This document shows positions 6,233 through 55,522 of a stretch of DNA of 64,000 nucleotides, in pieces. The DNA comes from Betaproteobacteria bacterium (lineage in GTDB: Bacteria; Pseudomonadota; Gammaproteobacteria; Burkholderiales; JACQAP01). Position 1 is the first letter of the stretch; each line of letters starts with the position of its first letter. The position numbers and the translations under genes are program-made. Under the pieces are notes generated by a model, which did no database searches, was not told the DNA's origin, and saw nothing but the letters and a program-made list of their open reading frames with translations. The stretch covers positions 154,418-218,417 of the forward strand of contig JACQAP010000026.1 of assembly GCA_016194905.1 (NCBI GenBank), written 5' to 3'.

Positions 6233-6301
6233 CTGGTAACTAGTGATTAGTGATTGGCAAAAAACGCAATCACTAATCACCAGTCACTAATCACCAATCA
6301 C
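6233..6301. repeat. Inverted heptamer repeats between pth and ychF
   Basis: The whole 69 bp spacer is made of 7-base units. The left arm has ACTAGTG/ATTAGTG units and the right arm is a run of CACTAAT, CACCAGT and CACCAAT units. The arms are complementary and could form a hairpin around a short A-rich loop. The repeat abuts the ychF ATG, leaving no visible Shine-Dalgarno. A second member of the same family lies between thiS and thiG. Confidence 0.8.
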
Positions 6302-46482: not shown

Positions 46483-47160
46483 TTAGCCGCGAGCGAGGAA
46501 GACTAAATCGCGCACGACATGACCGAGCTTCAGCCCGCGGCTTTCGAATTTGGTCAGCGGCCGGTAATCCGGGCGTGGCGCAAAGCCCTCCACGCTGTTG
46601 ACCAGCAGCGCCTCCCCCGAGAGTACCTCCAGGATCTGCGACGCATACTCCTCCCAGTCGGTCGCCACGTGCAGGTATCCGCCGGGCTGCAGCCGGCTTG
46701 CCAGCAGATGCACGAACGCGGGCTGCAGGAGCCGGCGCTTGTGATGGCGTTTCTTTGGCCAGGGGTCGGGAAAGAACACATGGACGCCGGACAGGCCGGT
46801 CGCCGGGATCATGTGCGTGACGACTTCCACCGCGTCGTGCCGGACGATGCGGATGTTGGTCAGTTGCCGCGCCTCGATCAGCCGCAGCAGACCGCCGACG
46901 CCAGGCGTATGCACTTCGATGCCGAGGTAGTCGTTTTGCGGATGTTCGGCCGCGATCTGCGCGGTGGTTTCCCCCATGCCGAAACCGATTTCGAGAAACT
47001 TCGGTGCGGACCGGGTGAAGGCGGCGTCGAAGTCGAACGGCGCGGCGGTATAAGCGATGCCGAACAGCGGCAGTAAGGAGTCGACGGCGCGCCGCTGCGC
47101 GTTCGAGACACGGCCCTGACGCAGCACGAAACTGCGGATATGTCGTTGTGGGGAGTTCAC
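46483..47160 (-). CDS. trmB: tRNA (guanine-N7-)-methyltransferase TrmB
   Basis: TrmB methylates G46 of tRNA. The 225-residue protein has motif [21 protein letters not shown], then [15 protein letters not shown] and [18 protein letters not shown], and an [11 protein letters not shown]-terminus. It faces the 153 bp repeat and hemW. Motifs and length are normal. Confidence 0.96.
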
Positions 47161-47209: not shown

Positions 47210-49873
47210 TTATGGCTTTTGCTCGCCGCCCGCGGCAGCGTCGTCCTGCGCTTGCGCCGGCTCCGCCAGGCGCATCCTCAGGCTGAGTGTGGGCAGGTCC
47301 AGCGTGGACAGCGGCGGAGTGATTTCTCTCGATTTTACCGGTACGACCGAAACGGCCTTCACCGATTCGGCGCGGCGGGCCTCCGCCGATCCCGAGTAGG
47401 GCGTCCAGCCGACGAAGACCCAGCTTACGACCGCGGCTGCTGCAACCGTGACGCCGCCGGCCAGCGCGCCGCGATAGGAGCGCCGCGCCGGTGCAAAATC
47501 GGCGCCGGATGCATAAGAGCGGCTGTCTTCGACGCAGGCGGGCTTCGTGAAGTCGGCGATCCTGTTCTTCGTGATTTCGTCCAGGTCGTCTTCGATCGCG
47601 TCGATTTGTGCGGGCGGTGTCGGCTCTCCAGCAATTTCGCCGGCGATGCGCTCGTTCAAGACTTCCATTGCCGACACTTCCGGGTCCGGCTCCCCTGTCG
47701 CCGGTTCATCAGCCGCGATGGCCGCCCAGTTCTGCTCCTCCGACTCGGTGTCTTCGAATTCGATGCTGTCGGTCGTTTGCACGACGTTTGCGAGCGTCGA
47801 GACGGCGACGCGACTGGAAACAGGTGCGTACGCGCTTTGCTCCTGCGCACTGTCTTCCAAGATCTCGCGTTCGGCGGCGGCATGGGCACGGGCGCGATCA
47901 TGCGCGGCCTTGATCCGGCTGCGTTTGTAGGCGATCTTCCGGCGAGCGGCCTCGGCTGCGGCCCGCAAAGCCTCGGTGCGTTCGGTTTCCGCGTGCAGCA
48001 ACTCTTCCGCAGCGGCCCGGGCTTCCTGCTCAGCGGCGACCTGCGCCTGCGCTGTCTCATGCGCCGCGCTTTCAGCCTGCAACCGGGCCTGCGCGACCTC
48101 GGCGGCTTCCCGTTCGACGCAACGGCGCTCAAGTGCCATTTCGTCTGCTTTTTTCTCGACCTCTTCGCGTGTGCGGGTTTCGCGCAAGACCTCGAGTTCG
48201 GATTCGACCCGTTTCGCTTCGGCGACCGCCAGTTCCTTCTCGGCCCGTTCGCGTGCCAGCGCGGCGGCACGCGCGCGGATGGCCATGCGCGCGCGTGCCT
48301 CGGCCGCCTGGCCGGCCAGGTCCTCGGCACCGGCGGCGCCCTCGGCTTCCGCCAGCGCCTGCCTTTCCATGCAGACTTTTTCCTCGGCAGCCCGCAGACA
48401 GCGTTCCTCCGCCAAACGGCGCGCCTCCGCAGCTTCCTCGACCTGATCTTCCGCCAGACGACGTGCGGCAACGGTCTCTTCGAATCGTTGGTTCAGCTCC
48501 GCCAGTCGCGCGGCCGCAGTTTCAACCGCCGCCTGTGCTTCGGCGGCCGCAAACCGTTCGGCGTCGATGCGTTGTTGGGCGAGTTGCTGCGCCTGACGGT
48601 CGGTTTCGTTGCGCGCGCGCTGGGTTTCCCAGGCCGCAGCATCCAGCAGGACTTGCTGCTCGGCGATGACACGCGCCTCGCGTTCCTCTGCCGCGCGCGC
48701 TTCCACGGCTTCACGTGCCAGCGTTTCGGTCAGCGCACGGGCCCTGGCTTCCTGTTCGGCGTGGATTTCGGCATCCAGGCGTGCGGTCGTGGCGTCCTGC
48801 GACGCCAACTCGGCTTGTGCCCGCGCTTCCGCCGCGCGCTTCAGTTCGGATTCCGCACGCGCGCGCACCTCCGCCGATTCGCGCTGTTTGCGTTCCGCGG
48901 TCCGGCGTGCCTGCATTTCGCCCTGCGCTTCCTGCTCCGCGCCATGGCGCAACTCGGTTTCGTGCATGAGCGCGCACGCTTCATCGGCCCGCGATTTTTC
49001 GGCTGCGGCCAGTTCCCGCTCGATGCGCAGCTGGTTTTCCGCTGCGTTGCGTGCGCGGGCTTCATGCGCGACCCGCGCCTGGGCTTCCGCCGTGGCGGAT
49101 TGCTCGGCCTTGATGCGGGCTTCCGATTCCGCGGCCGCGGCCGCTTCGGCTTCGATGCGCGCCAAAGACAGCAGTTTCAAGCGGGCATCGATGGTGGATC
49201 TCGAGTCGGCCAGTTCCCGGGCGCGTGCTTCGGCCGCGGCGCGTTCGCGAGCTTCCTGCGACGCACGGCTTTCGGCTTCGGCGCGCGCCCGCGCCTGCTC
49301 GACTGCCTGACGTTGCGCTTCGGCCCGCGCCAGCGCCTGCACTTCGGCGCGGGTCTCTTCCTGCTCGCGGTGCTCGTACGCTGCACTCAGATCGTTGAGT
49401 TGCCGCTTGAGTTCTTCCGCGCGAACACGGGCGCGTTCGCCCAGCGTGCGGTCGGTGCCGGCCTGGGCTTCGGCAAGGCGCGCGGCGTTGGCTTCGCTTT
49501 CCTCGCGTCGCCGCGCTTCCGTGATCGCGGCCTGGTTGGCGCGCTTGCGCTGTTCGGCGGCAGCAAGGGCCAGACGTTCCGCTTCGATGACGGCGAGGGC
49601 GGATTGCGCCGCTTCCTCGTCGGCGCGTGCACGCTGTTCGGTGAGTCGCGCCGCCTCGGTTTCCAGTCGCCCACGTTCTTCGGCCGCGGTGCGGGCGCGG
49701 ACTTCACGCTGTGCACGGCTTTGCGCCGCCAGCGCCGCGCTGGTTTCGGCCTCGACGCGCTCGACGGCCTCCTGAATGGCATGCATCGCCGGAGAATGGG
49801 AAAGATCGCCGTCCCAACTTGGGTTGGGCGCCAGGCTCGGCGGCGGGTTCGCCGGAGTATTTCGTGTCGACAT
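47210..49873 (-). CDS. Giant Ala/Glu/Arg-rich coiled-coil protein with C-terminal membrane segment
   Basis: This 887-residue protein is unlike its neighbours. Residues about 30-655 are an almost unbroken run of Ala, Glu, Arg and Gln with many AEARA/AEAEAR units and no proline after about residue 30. They should form a very long coiled coil or single alpha helix. An acidic linker follows (about 690-790). One hydrophobic helix ([22 protein letters not shown]) lies near residue 815, then a short Pro/Ser-rich tail. There is no signal peptide. It is probably anchored in the inner membrane with its rod in the cytoplasm. I recognise no family; function is unknown. Confidence 0.75.
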
Positions 49874-49992
49874 GGGATCCGTCCTCGTTCCAGGTTCGGC
49901 GAAAAAGCCGGGTGGGAGTCGAGACGGATTATCCGCAGGCTGGCAAATCGCCTAGCGGCGAATAGAAGGTGTTTCCCGGCCTATTTCCGGAT

Positions 49993-50796
49993 TCAGGCGG
50001 CCTTGCCCTGACTGGCGGAGGCGATGACGCCGCCGGTCGGCGACGAGGGGGTGGCGGCGTAAAGCTTTTTCGGCATGCGGCCGGCGAGGCAGGCTTCGCG
50101 TCCGGCCTGCACGGCTTTCTTCATGGCCGATGCCATCAACACCGGATCCCGCGCGGCGGCAATGGCCGTGTTCATCAGTACGCCATCGCAACCGAGTTCC
50201 ATCGCGATGGCCGCGTCGGACGCGGTGCCGACGCCGGCATCCACCAGGACCGGCACGGTCGCGTTGTCGATGATGATTTGCAGGTTCCAGGGATTGAGGA
50301 GGCCCATGCCCGATCCGATCAGCGAAGCGAGCGGCATCACCGCGACGCACCCGATCTGTTCCAGTTGCCGGGCGATGATCGGATCGTCGGAGGTATACAC
50401 CATGACCTTGAAGCCTTCCTGGACCAGCGTTTTGGCTGCGGAGAGGGTTTCCACCATGTTGGGGTAGAGCGTGTGGGGGTCGCCGAGCACTTCCAGCTTT
50501 ACCAAGTCGTGGCCGTCGAGCAGTTCGCGGGCGAGGCGCAGGGTGCGCACCGCGTCCTGCGCGCTGTAACAGCCCGCAGTGTTTGGGAGAATGGTATAAC
50601 GTTGCGGCGTCAGTACGTCGAGCAGGTTGGGCTCACCCGGATTCTGGCCGATGTTGGTGCGACGGATCGCCACGGTCACGATCTGGGCGCCGCTCGCCTC
50701 GACCGCATCGCGGGTCTGCGCGAAATCCTTGTACTTGCCGGTGCCCACCAGCAAGCGCGATGAGTAAGGCTTTCCTGCGATGATGAGTTGATCCAT
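49993..50796 (-). CDS. thiG: Thiazole synthase ThiG
   Basis: ThiG forms the thiazole ring of thiamine using sulfur from ThiS-COSH. The 267-residue protein starts [20 protein letters not shown]. It has the TIM-barrel lysine in [22 protein letters not shown] and [23 protein letters not shown] 50796 gives the family start, but no Shine-Dalgarno is visible because a heptamer-repeat hairpin abuts it. It is co-directional with thiS upstream. Confidence 0.96.
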
Positions 50797-50802
50797 GACT
50801 TC

Positions 50803-50888
50803 GGTGATGAGTGACTGGTGACTGGTGACTGGTCGAAGACTCGACAGCCGGGGTCTCCGCCAATCACCAGTCACCAGCTACCGATCAC
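50803..50888. repeat. Inverted heptamer repeats between thiS and thiG
   Basis: On the plus strand, GTGACTG units run in tandem at 50811-50831, and complementary CACCAGT-type units lie at 50862-50878, with a non-repetitive middle. This is the same repeat family as at 6233-6301. The element occupies nearly the whole thiS-thiG spacer. Confidence 0.75.
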
Positions 50889-51139: not shown

Positions 51140-51213
51140 GCGGGTGTAGTTCAATGGTAGAACGAAAGCTTCCCAAGCTCTAGACGTGGGTTCGATCCCC
51201 ATCACCCGCTCCA
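51140..51213 (+). tRNA. tRNA-Gly (anticodon CCC)
   Basis: Acceptor GCGGGTG pairs with CACCCGC (wobble allowed), the D-arm is TAGTTCAATGGTAGAA, the anticodon loop TTCCCAA gives anticodon CCC, and the T-loop is TTCGATC. CCA is encoded. It closely resembles E. coli glyU. Confidence 0.96.
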
Positions 51214-51358
51214 TCTCAACTTCCATTGTTGCATTTGATGCGGCGCACCGTGAATATCCGTCACTTCGCGCTAAACTTCTTGAGGTTTGCGCCGTCAAGC
51301 CGACGTTGAGACCGAAGACTTTTCTTGCTTCCACTTTGCGAACGGCATATCAAATTCA

Positions 51359-54300
51359 ATGGCGGTTTCCAAGTTGAAGTCAGGTGTCGTCACCCATCTT
51401 GCGGCGCCGGAGCAGTTCCTTGCCTTGGTGGAATTGTCGCCGGACGCCATCCTCATCCACACGGAAGGCTGCATTTCCTACGCCAATGCCGCGGCCGTAC
51501 GGTTGTTGCACGCGGACAGTGCGAGCCAGATTGTGGGCGTGGAGGCTCTCGCGCTGGTTCATCCGGATGATCGCGAGATGGTGCGCGAACGCATTGCACG
51601 CCAGAATCGGGGCGAAAACGTGCCGCGGATCGAACAGCGCTACATGCGCGCGGACGGCAGCGTCGTCGACGTGGAAGTCACGTCCGCGCCATTTGTCTAC
51701 GGCGGCCGCACGGCCATCCAGGTTTTCGTCCGCGATATCTCCGAACGCAAGGCCGCCGACCGGCGCATCGGCCGTCTGACCGACCTCTATGCCGCACTGT
51801 CCCTGACCAGCCAGGCCATCACGCGCTTGCGCGACCGCGACGCGTTACTCAACGAATGTTGCCGGATCGCCGTGCGCCACGGGGGCCTGCGGATGACATG
51901 GGTCGTGCGGGCGGCCCCGGAAACAAAGCGGGCGATCCGCGTTGCCACCAGCGCACCGGCTGCGGCGTATGAGGAAATCATCATCTCGCTCGACCCTGAT
52001 CAAGCGGAGGGCCGCGGGCCTATCGCCATGGCGATACGGGACGATCGCAGTTACCTCTGCGACGACGTGATGGCGGATCCGAACATGGCACCGTGGCACG
52101 AGCCGGCCCGGCGCCACGGCCTGCGTTCGGCCGCCGCCTTTCCGCTGCACCGGGGTGGCAAGGTGTGGGGGGCCATCATCCATTATGCGGGCGAAACCGG
52201 CTTCTTCCGGCAAGACCTGGTCGACCTGCTGGAGCGCATGGCGGAAGACATCTCGTTTGCGCTGGATAACATCGAATCCGACACCCGGCATGCATTGGTG
52301 GAAAAAGCATTGCTCCAGCAGGAACGCAGGATCGAGACCCTCATGGGCAACCTGCCGGGCATGGCTTACCGCTGTCGCAACGACTCCCATTGGACCATGG
52401 AGCTGATCAGCGAGGGCTGTTTCGAGCTGACCGGATATCGCGTGGAAGAACTCCTGTTCAATGAGGTCGTCTCGTTCGAAAGCATCATCCATCCGGAAGA
52501 TCAGCGTCGTGTCCGCGACGAAATCGATGCCGGCCTGTTGGAGCGCCGGCGCTTCGTCATCGAGTATCGGATCATCGGCAAGGATGGCGAAGAGAAATGG
52601 GTCTGGGAACGCGGACAGGGCGTCAACGACGAAAACGGAAACCTGATCGCGCTGGAAGGCTTCGTCACCGAAGTGACGGAACGCCGGCGCGCCGAACATA
52701 GCCTGCGGGAAAGCGAAGCACGTTTCCGCAGCCTGGTGGAGCTGAGCTCCGACTGGTACTGGGAGCAGGACGAGAACTCGCGCTTTACCGAAGTGTCACG
52801 CGGTTTTTATCAGCATGTGCGGCCTGAGGAGTTCATTGGCAGGGCGCGCTGGGAAATCAAAGGCGCGTTGCCGCCCGCCGAAGGCTGGGACGCGCATCGC
52901 CAGATGCTCGCCCGACACGAGCCGTTTCGCGATCTCGAGTACGGCAGGGTGCTCGCGGGCGGCATCATCCGTCACTTCAGTTTCAGCGGCGAGCCGATGT
53001 TCGACGAGGAGCGTCGCTTCAAAGGATATCGCGGCGTCGGCCGGGACGTCACGGCGCGTCGCAACGCGGAGGAGGATCTGATCCGCTTCCGTGCGGCCAT
53101 GGAGACCTCGGCCGACGCGATCTTTATCACCGACTTCAGCACGATGCGCTACCTGGACGTCAACGACACAGCGTGTCGCATGCTCGGCTATTCGCGCGAT
53201 GAGCTGCTGCGCATGGGCGTGCAGGATCTCAATTCGGACGAGGATCTGCCGCTGGTGCGCGGACTGTTCGACAACGTCAGGACGCAGGGAGCGAATTCCG
53301 GCGGCGCGGGCTCGGACCTCCGCCGCCTGCGCCGCAAGGACGGCAGCATCGTGCCCGTGGAGGTCTATCGCCGCTATCTGAAGAGCGGCGACAAAGACAT
53401 TGTCGTATCCGTGGCGCGCGACGTTAGCGAACGTCTGAAGGCGCAGGAGGATCTCGTGCGCTTCCGGACCGCGCTGGAGACGTCCCCGGACCTGATCTTT
53501 CTGATCGACCTGCGGACGCTGCGCTACATCGACGCCAACGAAACCGCCTGCCGCATGCTGGGCTACCAGCGTGAAGAACTGCTGGGAATGAGCCTGCTGC
53601 AGATCAACGCCAATGTCAGCGAGGAGGACCTGCGTGGGAAATTCCAGGAAACCGTTGCGCTCGGTCCGGACCGGGTGGTAACCGAGGCGGAGGGACGTAT
53701 GGCCCGCAGGAAGGACGGGTCGCTTTTTCCGATCGAGATCGCACGCCGCTATCTGCGCATCGGCGAGCGCGATATCATCGTCAGCGTCTCGCGCGACATC
53801 ACGGAACGCAAGCGGGCCGAGGAGGCGTTGCAGTTGCGCAACCTCGCGATCGAGGCCAGTGTCAATGCAATCCTGATCACCAATCATCTGCTGCCGGATC
53901 AGCCGATCGAGTATGTCAACCCCGCTTTCGAGCGCATGACCGGCTATTCGTCCGCTGAGATTGCCGGGCGCAACTGCCGTTTTCTGCAGGGAGCGGACCG
54001 CAACCAACCCGAAATCGAATTGTTGCGCACCGCGATTCGCGAAGGCTGCGAAGCGCGGGTGGTATTGCGCAATTATCGCCGCAACGGCGATGCGTTCTGG
54101 GCCGAGCTCAGCATTTCGCCACTGCGCGACGCGAACGGGCGCATTACGCATTATGTCGGCGTGCTCAGCGACATCACGGAAGCGCGCAACGTACGCGAAC
54201 AACTGGAACATCAGGCCAGCCACGATGCGCTGACCGGCCTGCCCAACCGCAGTCTGTTGTTCGACCGTCTCAACCAGGCCATCGCCCAGGCGCACCGCTA

Positions 54301-55522
54301 CCAGCGCACGATCGCGGTGGCATTCGTCGACCTCGACAATTTCAAATTCATCAACGACAGCCTCGGGCACGGTGCCGGCGATCAAGTCCTCAGGATCAGC
54401 GCCGACCGGCTGAGGGCCTGCCTGCGCGAGGGTGATACCGTGGCGCGGCACGGGGGTGACGAATTCGTGCTGCTGCTCAACGATCAGAGCGGACGCGAAT
54501 CGGTGACGCAAGTTGTCTCCCGCATTGTCGAAAAACTGGCCGCGCCGCTTGCCGCCGAAGGGCAGGAGCTCGCTACCACATGCAGTGTCGGGATCAGCCT
54601 GTATCCGGAACATGGAACCGATGCCGCGACACTGCTGAAAAACGCGGATGCGGCGATGTACCGGGCCAAGGCGCGAGGCAAGAACAGCTTCCGGTTCTAC
54701 ACCGTGGACTTGGGGACGCATCTGGGAGACAGACTGAAGCTGGAAACGCAGTTGCGGCGCGCACTGGAACTTGGCGAGTTCGTTCTGCACTATCAGCCGA
54801 AGATCGATTTGCGCAGCCGGGCCATCTACGGTCTGGAAGCACTGATCCGCTGGCGTCATCCGCAGGACGGACTGGTGTCGCCGGACCGCTTCATCGGTAT
54901 CGCGGAGGAGACCGGCCTGATCGTCCCGATCGGCGAATGGGCGTTGCTCACCGGATGCGCGCAAGTCCGCGCGTGGAGCGATGCCGGCTTGCCGCCGATG
55001 ATGCTGTCGGTAAATATTTCTGCGCGCCAGTTCAGGCGCGGCGATCTGGTGGAGACTGTGTCGCGGGCGTTGGCTGAAACCGGGCTCGCGGCGCAAAGAC
55101 TGGAACTGGAATTGACCGAGAGCCTGGTAATGGAAAACGCCGAGGAGTTCATCGACACGCTTAACGCGCTGAAGAGACTCGGCGTTAGCCTCAGCGTCGA
55201 CGATTTCGGAACCGGTTACTCCAGCCTGAGCTATTTGAAGCGCTTCCCGGTCGACAGGCTGAAGATCGACCAATCCTTCGTACGCGACATCGGCACCGAT
55301 CCGAACGATGCGGCGATTGCGCGCGCCGTGATTCAACTCGGCCACAGCCTGGACCTGCGCGTGACCGCTGAAGGCGTGGAAACCGCGGAGCAGTTGCGCT
55401 TCCTGCGTGAGCACGGGTGCGATGAGGTCCAGGGTTTTCTGTTCAGCCGGCCGCTGGCGGCGGAACGGGTGGTCGAGCTGCTGCGCGAAGGCCTGGATCC
55501 GGCGACGATGAACGGCGCTTGA
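51359..55522 (+). CDS. Multi-PAS/GAF/LOV GGDEF-EAL protein
   Basis: This 1387-residue cytoplasmic protein has, in order, PAS (51410-51770), GAF (51780-52290), PAS (52340-52690), PAS (52720-53070), two near-duplicate PAS domains (53085-53440; 53455-53820) and a LOV-type PAS (53840-54190). GGDEF follows, with active site GGDEF (54452-54466) and an REGD I-site. The EAL domain starts EALIRW (54836) and has DDFGTGYSSL intact. The LOV domain has GRNCRFLQG, with the flavin-adduct Cys at 53975-53977, and NYRRNGDAFW. It probably makes or degrades c-di-GMP in response to blue light and other signals. ATG 51359 is uncertain; TTG 51287 is an alternative. Confidence 0.92.
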   Translation: MAVSKLKSGVVTHLAAPEQFLALVELSPDAILIHTEGCISYANAAAVRLLHADSASQIVGVEALALVHPDDREMVRERIARQNRGENVPRIEQRYMRADGSVVDVEVTSAPFVYGGRTAIQVFVRDISERKAADRRIGRLTDLYAALSLTSQAITRLRDRDALLNECCRIAVRHGGLRMTWVVRAAPETKRAIRVATSAPAAAYEEIIISLDPDQAEGRGPIAMAIRDDRSYLCDDVMADPNMAPWHEPARRHGLRSAAAFPLHRGGKVWGAIIHYAGETGFFRQDLVDLLERMAEDISFALDNIESDTRHALVEKALLQQERRIETLMGNLPGMAYRCRNDSHWTMELISEGCFELTGYRVEELLFNEVVSFESIIHPEDQRRVRDEIDAGLLERRRFVIEYRIIGKDGEEKWVWERGQGVNDENGNLIALEGFVTEVTERRRAEHSLRESEARFRSLVELSSDWYWEQDENSRFTEVSRGFYQHVRPEEFIGRARWEIKGALPPAEGWDAHRQMLARHEPFRDLEYGRVLAGGIIRHFSFSGEPMFDEERRFKGYRGVGRDVTARRNAEEDLIRFRAAMETSADAIFITDFSTMRYLDVNDTACRMLGYSRDELLRMGVQDLNSDEDLPLVRGLFDNVRTQGANSGGAGSDLRRLRRKDGSIVPVEVYRRYLKSGDKDIVVSVARDVSERLKAQEDLVRFRTALETSPDLIFLIDLRTLRYIDANETACRMLGYQREELLGMSLLQINANVSEEDLRGKFQETVALGPDRVVTEAEGRMARRKDGSLFPIEIARRYLRIGERDIIVSVSRDITERKRAEEALQLRNLAIEASVNAILITNHLLPDQPIEYVNPAFERMTGYSSAEIAGRNCRFLQGADRNQPEIELLRTAIREGCEARVVLRNYRRNGDAFWAELSISPLRDANGRITHYVGVLSDITEARNVREQLEHQASHDALTGLPNRSLLFDRLNQAIAQAHRYQRTIAVAFVDLDNFKFINDSLGHGAGDQVLRISADRLRACLREGDTVARHGGDEFVLLLNDQSGRESVTQVVSRIVEKLAAPLAAEGQELATTCSVGISLYPEHGTDAATLLKNADAAMYRAKARGKNSFRFYTVDLGTHLGDRLKLETQLRRALELGEFVLHYQPKIDLRSRAIYGLEALIRWRHPQDGLVSPDRFIGIAEETGLIVPIGEWALLTGCAQVRAWSDAGLPPMMLSVNISARQFRRGDLVETVSRALAETGLAAQRLELELTESLVMENAEEFIDTLNALKRLGVSLSVDDFGTGYSSLSYLKRFPVDRLKIDQSFVRDIGTDPNDAAIARAVIQLGHSLDLRVTAEGVETAEQLRFLREHGCDEVQGFLFSRPLAAERVVELLREGLDPATMNGA

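What the first reader, a model, noticed from the sequence alone, without database searches (positions are those of the whole stretch)
47210..49873. 887-residue coiled-coil, membrane-anchored protein of unknown family
About 620 residues are Ala/Glu/Arg-rich helix without proline, which could give a rod of roughly 90 nm if fully helical. One membrane helix and an acidic linker lie at the C-terminus, with no signal peptide. Such rods in bacteria act as cytoskeletal, polar-organising or spacer proteins. It sits between trmB and thiG and has no obvious relation to either. The antisense strand is also open for 930 codons, a composition effect.
Basis: partly seen in the sequence, partly recalled or inferred. 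Interest (0 to 1): 0.6.

Follow-up and report, generated by a model that had tools for sequence, protein, structure and literature searches.

The report
Lineage-restricted membrane-anchored helical rod protein
This is a real gene, found so far in only two related bacteria, for a long alanine-, glutamate- and arginine-rich helical protein probably tethered to the inner membrane; it has no known family and probably acts as a structural spacer or scaffold.

Summary
The ORF is real. It encodes 887 residues on the minus strand (47210-49873), with 655 proline-free residues (29-683), an acidic linker, one hydrophobic segment (about 803-823) and a short tail holding a 26-residue stretch identical in the one orthologue found. 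That orthologue (L002 = G003, same genus, same position) shows purifying selection on this frame (dN/dS 0.20) and none on the antisense frame (1.3, two stops), so the antisense ORF is composition. It also carries a 2-nt frameshift near codon 81, so no second intact copy has been seen.

The helix is a 14-residue repeat, R-[A/V/I]-x-A-E-x-x-A-x-x-A-A-x-A (lag-14 z 8.6). Arg sits at 35 of 47 repeat starts with Glu four residues on. One indel between the orthologues removes exactly one repeat. AlphaFold gives four helices with Gly-bearing breaks, not one continuous rod.

The gene and its 119-bp leader lie between thiG and trmB in two of four genomes of the genus. They are absent from a third with over 88% identical flanks and from the other 397 of 399 genomes sampled in the order. 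No library matched.

Most likely it is a lineage-specific membrane-anchored spacer/scaffold. Function and oligomeric state are untested.

The parts
47210..49873 (-). rod gene, 887 aa, ATG start; stop codon at 47210-47212
   Evidence: dN/dS 0.20 against L002
49874..49992 (-). 119-bp leader between thiG and the rod gene; 113/119 identical in L002; predicted hairpins, one covering the GAGGA Shine-Dalgarno-like sequence 8 nt before the ATG
49790..49873 (-). N-terminal Pro-rich segment, aa 1-28
47825..49789 (-). proline-free A/E/R-rich helical region aa 29-683 with 14-residue repeat and Arg ladder
49463..49792 (-). predicted helix 1, aa 28-137
48956..49441 (-). predicted helix 2, aa 145-306
48386..48910 (-). 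predicted helix 3, aa 322-496; contains the 42-nt (one repeat) indel relative to L002
47849..48313 (-). predicted helix 4, aa 521-675
47486..47824 (-). acidic linker aa 684-796 (net -20), fastest-evolving part (dN/dS 0.39 for aa 681-795)
47405..47467 (-). predicted membrane segment aa 803-823, Arg-flanked on its N side (R797, R798, R801)
   Evidence: hydropathy only; AlphaFold does not model it
47213..47404 (-). C-terminal tail aa 824-887, predicted periplasmic
   Evidence: topology inferred
47258..47335 (-). tail stretch aa 847-872, identical in both orthologues (26 of 26)
49993..50874 (-). flanking thiG (Pfam ThiG; likely true start ATG 50796)
46483..47160 (-). flanking trmB

Best explanation
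A lineage-specific bitopic inner-membrane protein that works as a mechanical spacer or scaffold. SHOWN by sequence: a conserved coding gene with its own conserved leader, gained within one genus between thiG and trmB; a 655-residue proline-free region built on a 14-residue Ala/Glu/Arg repeat; an acidic linker; one hydrophobic segment; a short tail with a 26-residue identical stretch. PREDICTED: four helices of 110-175 residues. INFERRED: the rod lies in the cytoplasm (no signal peptide; Arg cluster on the N side of the hydrophobic segment) and the tail in the periplasm. The Arg1-Glu5 pair of each repeat staples the helix and the Ala face lets it pair weakly with itself or a partner. The tail docks on an envelope partner and fixes the rod to one place or distance from the membrane.
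For: dN/dS 0.20 overall and 0.09 in rod residues 90-300, equal to trmB's 0.09. Lag-14 z 8.6; the 14-state model gains more over a shuffled copy than periods 7, 11, 13, 15 or 18 (142 log units against 82, 20, 17, 10, 54). i to i+4 R/K-to-E/D pairs 61 against 23.4 in shuffles (z 9.9). The ladder position is identical in 42 of 42 places against 444 of 546 elsewhere (Fisher 2.4e-4). An indel of exactly one repeat. Helices at block-mean pLDDT mostly 75-89. One hydrophobic segment. Tail residues 847-872 identical.
Against: The only orthologue carries a frame-breaking 2-nt deletion near codon 81 and lies in a genome of 7% estimated contamination. No homologue of known function was found. AlphaFold did not model the TM or tail (block-mean pLDDT 27-45), so membrane anchoring rests on hydropathy. 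The ladder position was picked from 14 after seeing the data, and among Arg residues alone it is 30/30 against 49/55 (p 0.066). No data on expression, localisation or oligomeric state.
Confidence: 0.45

Rival explanations
1. Single-alpha-helix (SAH-like) spacer: the segments stay monomeric, held by i to i+4 Arg-Glu bridges, and act as rigid leashes or springs between the membrane and an N-terminal partner; no coiled coil forms.
For: Opposite-charge i to i+4 pairs 95 against about 46 in shuffles (R/K to E/D 61 against 23.4, E/D to R/K 34 against 23.1); like charges depleted at i+4; few large hydrophobics in the best a/d register. Ala is common in known SAHs (PMC5347031, passages).
Against: Ala periodicity of 3.51 and an Ala face. 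In PMC5347031 (passages) replacing charged pairs by Ala produced multimers rather than SAHs. No enrichment of E/D to R/K at i+3 (24 against 23.2); E to R at i+3 is reported there as probably the most stabilising Glu-Arg pairing.
Confidence: 0.25
2. Filament-forming, intermediate-filament-like cytoskeletal protein attached to the membrane by its C-terminus.
For: Head, four helical segments and tail; ladder spacing of 18 (14+4) at R151-R169, which reads as a stutter, and of 8 (7+1) at A449-L457; a stutter is found in IF proteins and crescentin (PMC10873595, passages).
Against: No sequence match to any PDB chain at E up to 0.01 by phmmer, although crescentin structures are deposited there (PMC10873595); the profile gave only phycocyanin and carboxylase rows at E 0.03-0.82. 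Packing core poor in large hydrophobics; integral TM candidate, unlike crescentin.
Confidence: 0.15
3. PodJ-like polar or site-specific scaffold that recruits signalling proteins through its acidic linker.
For: Same order of parts: cytoplasmic coils, charged linker, TM, periplasmic part (PMC8980812, passages). Two short helices are predicted in the linker (731-747, 766-776).
Against: No tetratricopeptide or peptidoglycan-binding domain (Pfam); tail only 64 residues; linker is the least constrained part (dN/dS 0.39).
Confidence: 0.1
4. A dispensable young gene: selectively weak, recently inserted and already decaying.
For: Present in only 2 of 4 genomes of the family; frameshift in L002; the thiG-trmB gap is 0.7-2.2 kb in three other fetched loci, and the two examined carry unrelated genes.
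Against: dN/dS 0.20 over residues 90-887 with rod residues 90-300 as constrained as trmB; leader 95% identical; host-like codon usage.
Confidence: 0.15

Closest known systems
PodJ (Caulobacter)
   Same: Order of parts: cytoplasmic helical coils, charged disordered linker, one TM, periplasmic C-terminus (PMC8980812, passages).
   Different: No TPR or peptidoglycan-binding domain, a far shorter tail, 14-residue A/E/R repeat. No PodJ sequence was compared directly.
Crescentin and other IF-like coiled-coil proteins (FilP, Scy)
   Same: Long helical rod with head and tail and stutter-like repeat shifts.
   Different: Ala-dominated face with Arg/Glu ladder, C-terminal TM candidate, no sequence match in PDB. 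FilP and Scy seen only in a search listing.
Single alpha-helix (SAH) domains
   Same: Dense i to i+4 Glu-Arg pairs, low large-hydrophobic content.
   Different: Ala 29% and a regular 14-residue Ala face, which in designed peptides promoted association (PMC5347031, passages).
Alacoils / Ala-seam coiled coils
   Same: Ala dominates positions 4, 8 and 12, and is commonest at 11, of the repeat.
   Different: Every second heptad carries Arg and Glu at the equivalent positions; strand orientation unknown.

Membership tests
Crescentin / IF-like protein | detectable sequence similarity to crescentin | tested here: not met
   phmmer of PDB chains, 0 matches at E up to 0.01; profile gave no such match
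Crescentin / IF-like protein | continuous heptad-repeat coiled coil with a stutter | tested here: inconclusive
   period 3.51 for Ala, 14+4 shift at 151-169, but a weak a/d core
Crescentin / IF-like protein | self-assembly into filaments | not testable with these tools
   needs protein and EM
PodJ | cytoplasmic coils, linker, single TM, periplasmic C-terminus | tested here: inconclusive
   order present by hydropathy and composition; TM not modelled
PodJ | periplasmic TPR and peptidoglycan-binding domains | tested here: not met
   no Pfam match; only GT87 at E 0.12, below cut-off
SAH domain | enriched opposite-charge pairs at i+3/i+4 | tested here: met
   R/K to E/D at i+4 z 9.9, E/D to R/K at i+4 z 2.8; not enriched at i+3
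SAH domain | mainly charged residues, monomeric | tested here: inconclusive
   E+D+R+K 38% and Ala 29%; monomeric state not testable
Alacoil | Ala predominant at a or d | tested here: met
   Ala 0.50 at position 4 and 0.62 at position 8 of the 14-state model; assignment of these to d and a is mine
Alacoil | antiparallel closely packed helices | not testable with these tools
   only a monomer model could be run, pTM 0.21

The most novel reading that the evidence does not exclude
The 14-residue repeat is an assembly code. In one heptad positions a/e are Arg/Glu, in the next Ala/Ala. Two chains offset by an odd number of heptads would pack the bulky Arg-Glu layer of one against the Ala-Ala layer of the other, giving a ratchet-like, register-locked Ala-rich filament anchored to the membrane: a helical assembly principle not matched in the libraries searched, arisen within one bacterial genus.
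Probability: 0.12. Interest if true: 0.65.

Novelty: new variant of a known kind. Interest (0 to 1): 0.4.

Why it matters
A large structural-looking gene that appeared within a single genus, at a site whose empty version survives in a congener, and is already under strong selection, is a good test case for how new scaffold or cytoskeletal proteins arise. Its regular Arg/Glu-Ala 14-residue repeat lies between single alpha-helices and Ala-seam coils, so its biophysics would say what decides between the two. It is otherwise an orphan protein of a familiar broad type.

Tried and rejected
Family searches in Pfam, NCBIfam, PHROGs and PADLOC gave nothing above a cut-off (Pfam GT87 E 0.12 covers only the hydrophobic segment and was rejected). 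PDB profile rows (phycocyanin beta E 0.03-0.19, propionyl-CoA carboxylase 0.82) were rejected as helical-composition matches. Plasmids, phages and viral contigs gave no match. Three weak order-level hits (E 0.002-0.01, partial, two with stops) and one in G000 (E 0.09, one stop) were not accepted. In one search weak rod hits in L036, L042 and L046 (E 1e-7 to 1e-9, composition correction and filter off) were set aside as compositional. No paralogue in G000. A recent 42-bp tandem duplication origin is not supported: TRF finds no such array. A sigma-70-type promoter or terminator for the leader: none found beyond shuffles. A known RNA in the leader: none. A recent foreign origin by codon usage: not seen. 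The second AlphaFold job on the C-terminus was uninformative. Searches for a described 14-residue repeat protein and for bacterial coiled-coil rods listed nothing matching; only listings were read there. TipN was searched (listing only) and not compared; that its TM regions are N-terminal is recalled. A listing on orphan genes was not read further. A fold search of the low-confidence models was not run because it would be meaningless.

Full report
OBSERVATION. The ORF 47210-49873 (-) is present as stated: 887 aa from ATG. Prolines stop at residue 28 and resume at 684, so 655 residues are proline-free. Their composition is A 29%, E 18.5%, R 15%. The only strongly hydrophobic segment is at about 803-823 (best window mean 2.07); three Arg precede it, and the 28-residue N-terminus has no hydrophobic run.

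IS IT A GENE? Over residues 90-887 the sense frame has dN 0.117, dS 0.575, ratio 0.20, with differences by codon position 108/67/257. Residues 90-300 have 0.093, the linker 0.39, residues 796-822 0.13, the tail 0.28; trmB has 0.093 and thiG 0.078. The exactly opposite antisense frame has 1.3 and two stops in L002 (all). The antisense frame shifted by one base also has a low ratio (0.27) but holds seven stops in each sequence. The open antisense is expected from composition at a few per cent (3.6% of 5000 simulations). Codon choice matches the neighbouring genes. Against this, L002 lacks 2 nt in a GC-dinucleotide run near codon 81, so its frame is interrupted; whether this is real or an assembly error cannot be told here. 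Selection is visible on both sides of the break (0.226 and 0.204).

THE REPEAT. Identity at lag 14 is 0.267 (shuffles 0.156, z 8.6, 0 of 2000 as high) and stays raised at 28, 42 and 56. A 14-state cyclic model gives R-[A/V/I]-x-A-E-x-x-A-x-x-A-A-x-A and beats periods 7, 11, 13, 15 and 18 in gain over a shuffled copy, one shuffle per period. The first position is Arg in 35 of 47 repeats from 39 to 683, with shifts of +4 at 151-169 and an 8-residue step at 449-457. Between orthologues that position is identical in 42 of 42 places against 444 of 546 at the other thirteen (Fisher p 2.4e-4, post hoc among 14 positions). Restricted to Arg residues it is 30 of 30 against 49 of 55 (p 0.066), so part of the effect is residue type. 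R/K to E/D pairs at i+4 number 61 against 23.4 expected (z 9.9). L002 differs by an indel of exactly 42 nt, one repeat. No DNA-level tandem array of this unit remains.

STRUCTURE. AlphaFold with the two-row alignment gives helices 28-137, 145-306, 322-496 and 521-675, mostly at pLDDT 75-89, with breaks at Gly-bearing stretches. pTM is 0.21, so their mutual arrangement is unknown, and the TM and tail are not modelled. The 602 helical residues would span about 90 nm end to end (0.15 nm per residue, textbook value), but folding back at the breaks is possible. The best a/d registers are 55-75% hydrophobic, mostly Ala. Designed peptides in PMC5347031 (passages) show that Glu-Arg/Lys helices remain single while Ala seams drive association; this protein has features of both.

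DISTRIBUTION AND ORIGIN. With the C-terminal 198 residues, 2 of 60 genomes of the relatives set, the window's own included, matched; with the two-row profile, 2 of 4 family genomes, 2 of 399 order genomes with strong matches plus three weak rejected rows, and 1 of 369 class genomes, the window's own. In some searches only up to eight candidates per genome were scored. trmB was found in 24 of 24 genomes asked, and 20 loci from 20 of them were read. thiG lies in 18 of these 20; between the aligned ends of thiG and trmB, 14 of 18 have at most about 300 bp, G003 has the rod, and three have 0.7-2.2 kb, of which two were read and carry unrelated genes (GGDEF-type and acetyltransferase-like by eye). 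The congener G002, with thiG 89% and trmB 91.5% identical, has 64 bp there and keeps the trmB leader. Over thiG plus trmB the differences are 11.6% (G000-G003), 13.9% (G000-G002), 13.3% (G003-G002) and 27% to G001. The gene was therefore most likely gained within the genus; gain after the G002 split, or earlier gain with loss in G002, cannot be separated with confidence.

LEADER. The 119 bp before the ATG are 113/119 identical, against 33% difference at third codon positions (257 of 783). Both folds are more stable than shuffles (z -2.95 and -2.80), with GAGGA in a stem. Five of six differences fall in unpaired positions, which make up 38% of the leader. No copy elsewhere in G000, no Rfam family. 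It may be a regulated translation leader; this is inference.

MECHANISM. I commit to a membrane-anchored helical spacer/scaffold (0.45). The SAH-type monomer (0.25) and IF-like filament (0.15) are sub-questions that one ultracentrifugation and one EM experiment would settle; the confidences of the readings overlap and are not meant to add to one. The identical 26-residue tail stretch (847-872) is the best candidate for a partner-binding site; two sequences cannot prove it.

KNOWN KINDS. It resembles PodJ in order of parts (PMC8980812, passages), but PodJ's periplasmic domains are absent. It resembles crescentin in being a long rod with a stutter-like shift (PMC10873595, passages), without sequence similarity. 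It is not filed in any family.

Noticed in passing
49874-49992 (-): Leader of the rod gene 95% identical to the orthologue's, predicted hairpin covering the Shine-Dalgarno-like GAGGA; possible translational control.
   Followed up: partly
L002:1763 region: 2-nt deletion in a GC-dinucleotide run breaks the orthologue's frame near codon 81; slippage, polymorphism or assembly error.
   Followed up: partly
L038:3744-5660 and L046:1870-2838: The thiG-trmB gap also carries unrelated genes in other families (GGDEF-type; two acetyltransferase-like), so it seems an insertion-tolerant slot.
   Followed up: partly
50804-50829 (-) and 6276-6301 (+): Short intergenic repeat of GTCACCA-like 7-mers; upstream of thiG it lies beside a palindrome, and the listed thiG ORF start runs through it (likely real ATG at 50796).
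   Followed up: partly
51140-51210 (+): tRNA gene (Rfam 65.4 bits) between thiG and the large PAS-GGDEF-EAL gene.
   Followed up: no
51287-55522 (+): 1411-aa protein with six PAS stretches plus a GGDEF domain and c-di-GMP phosphodiesterase-like C-terminus.
   Followed up: no
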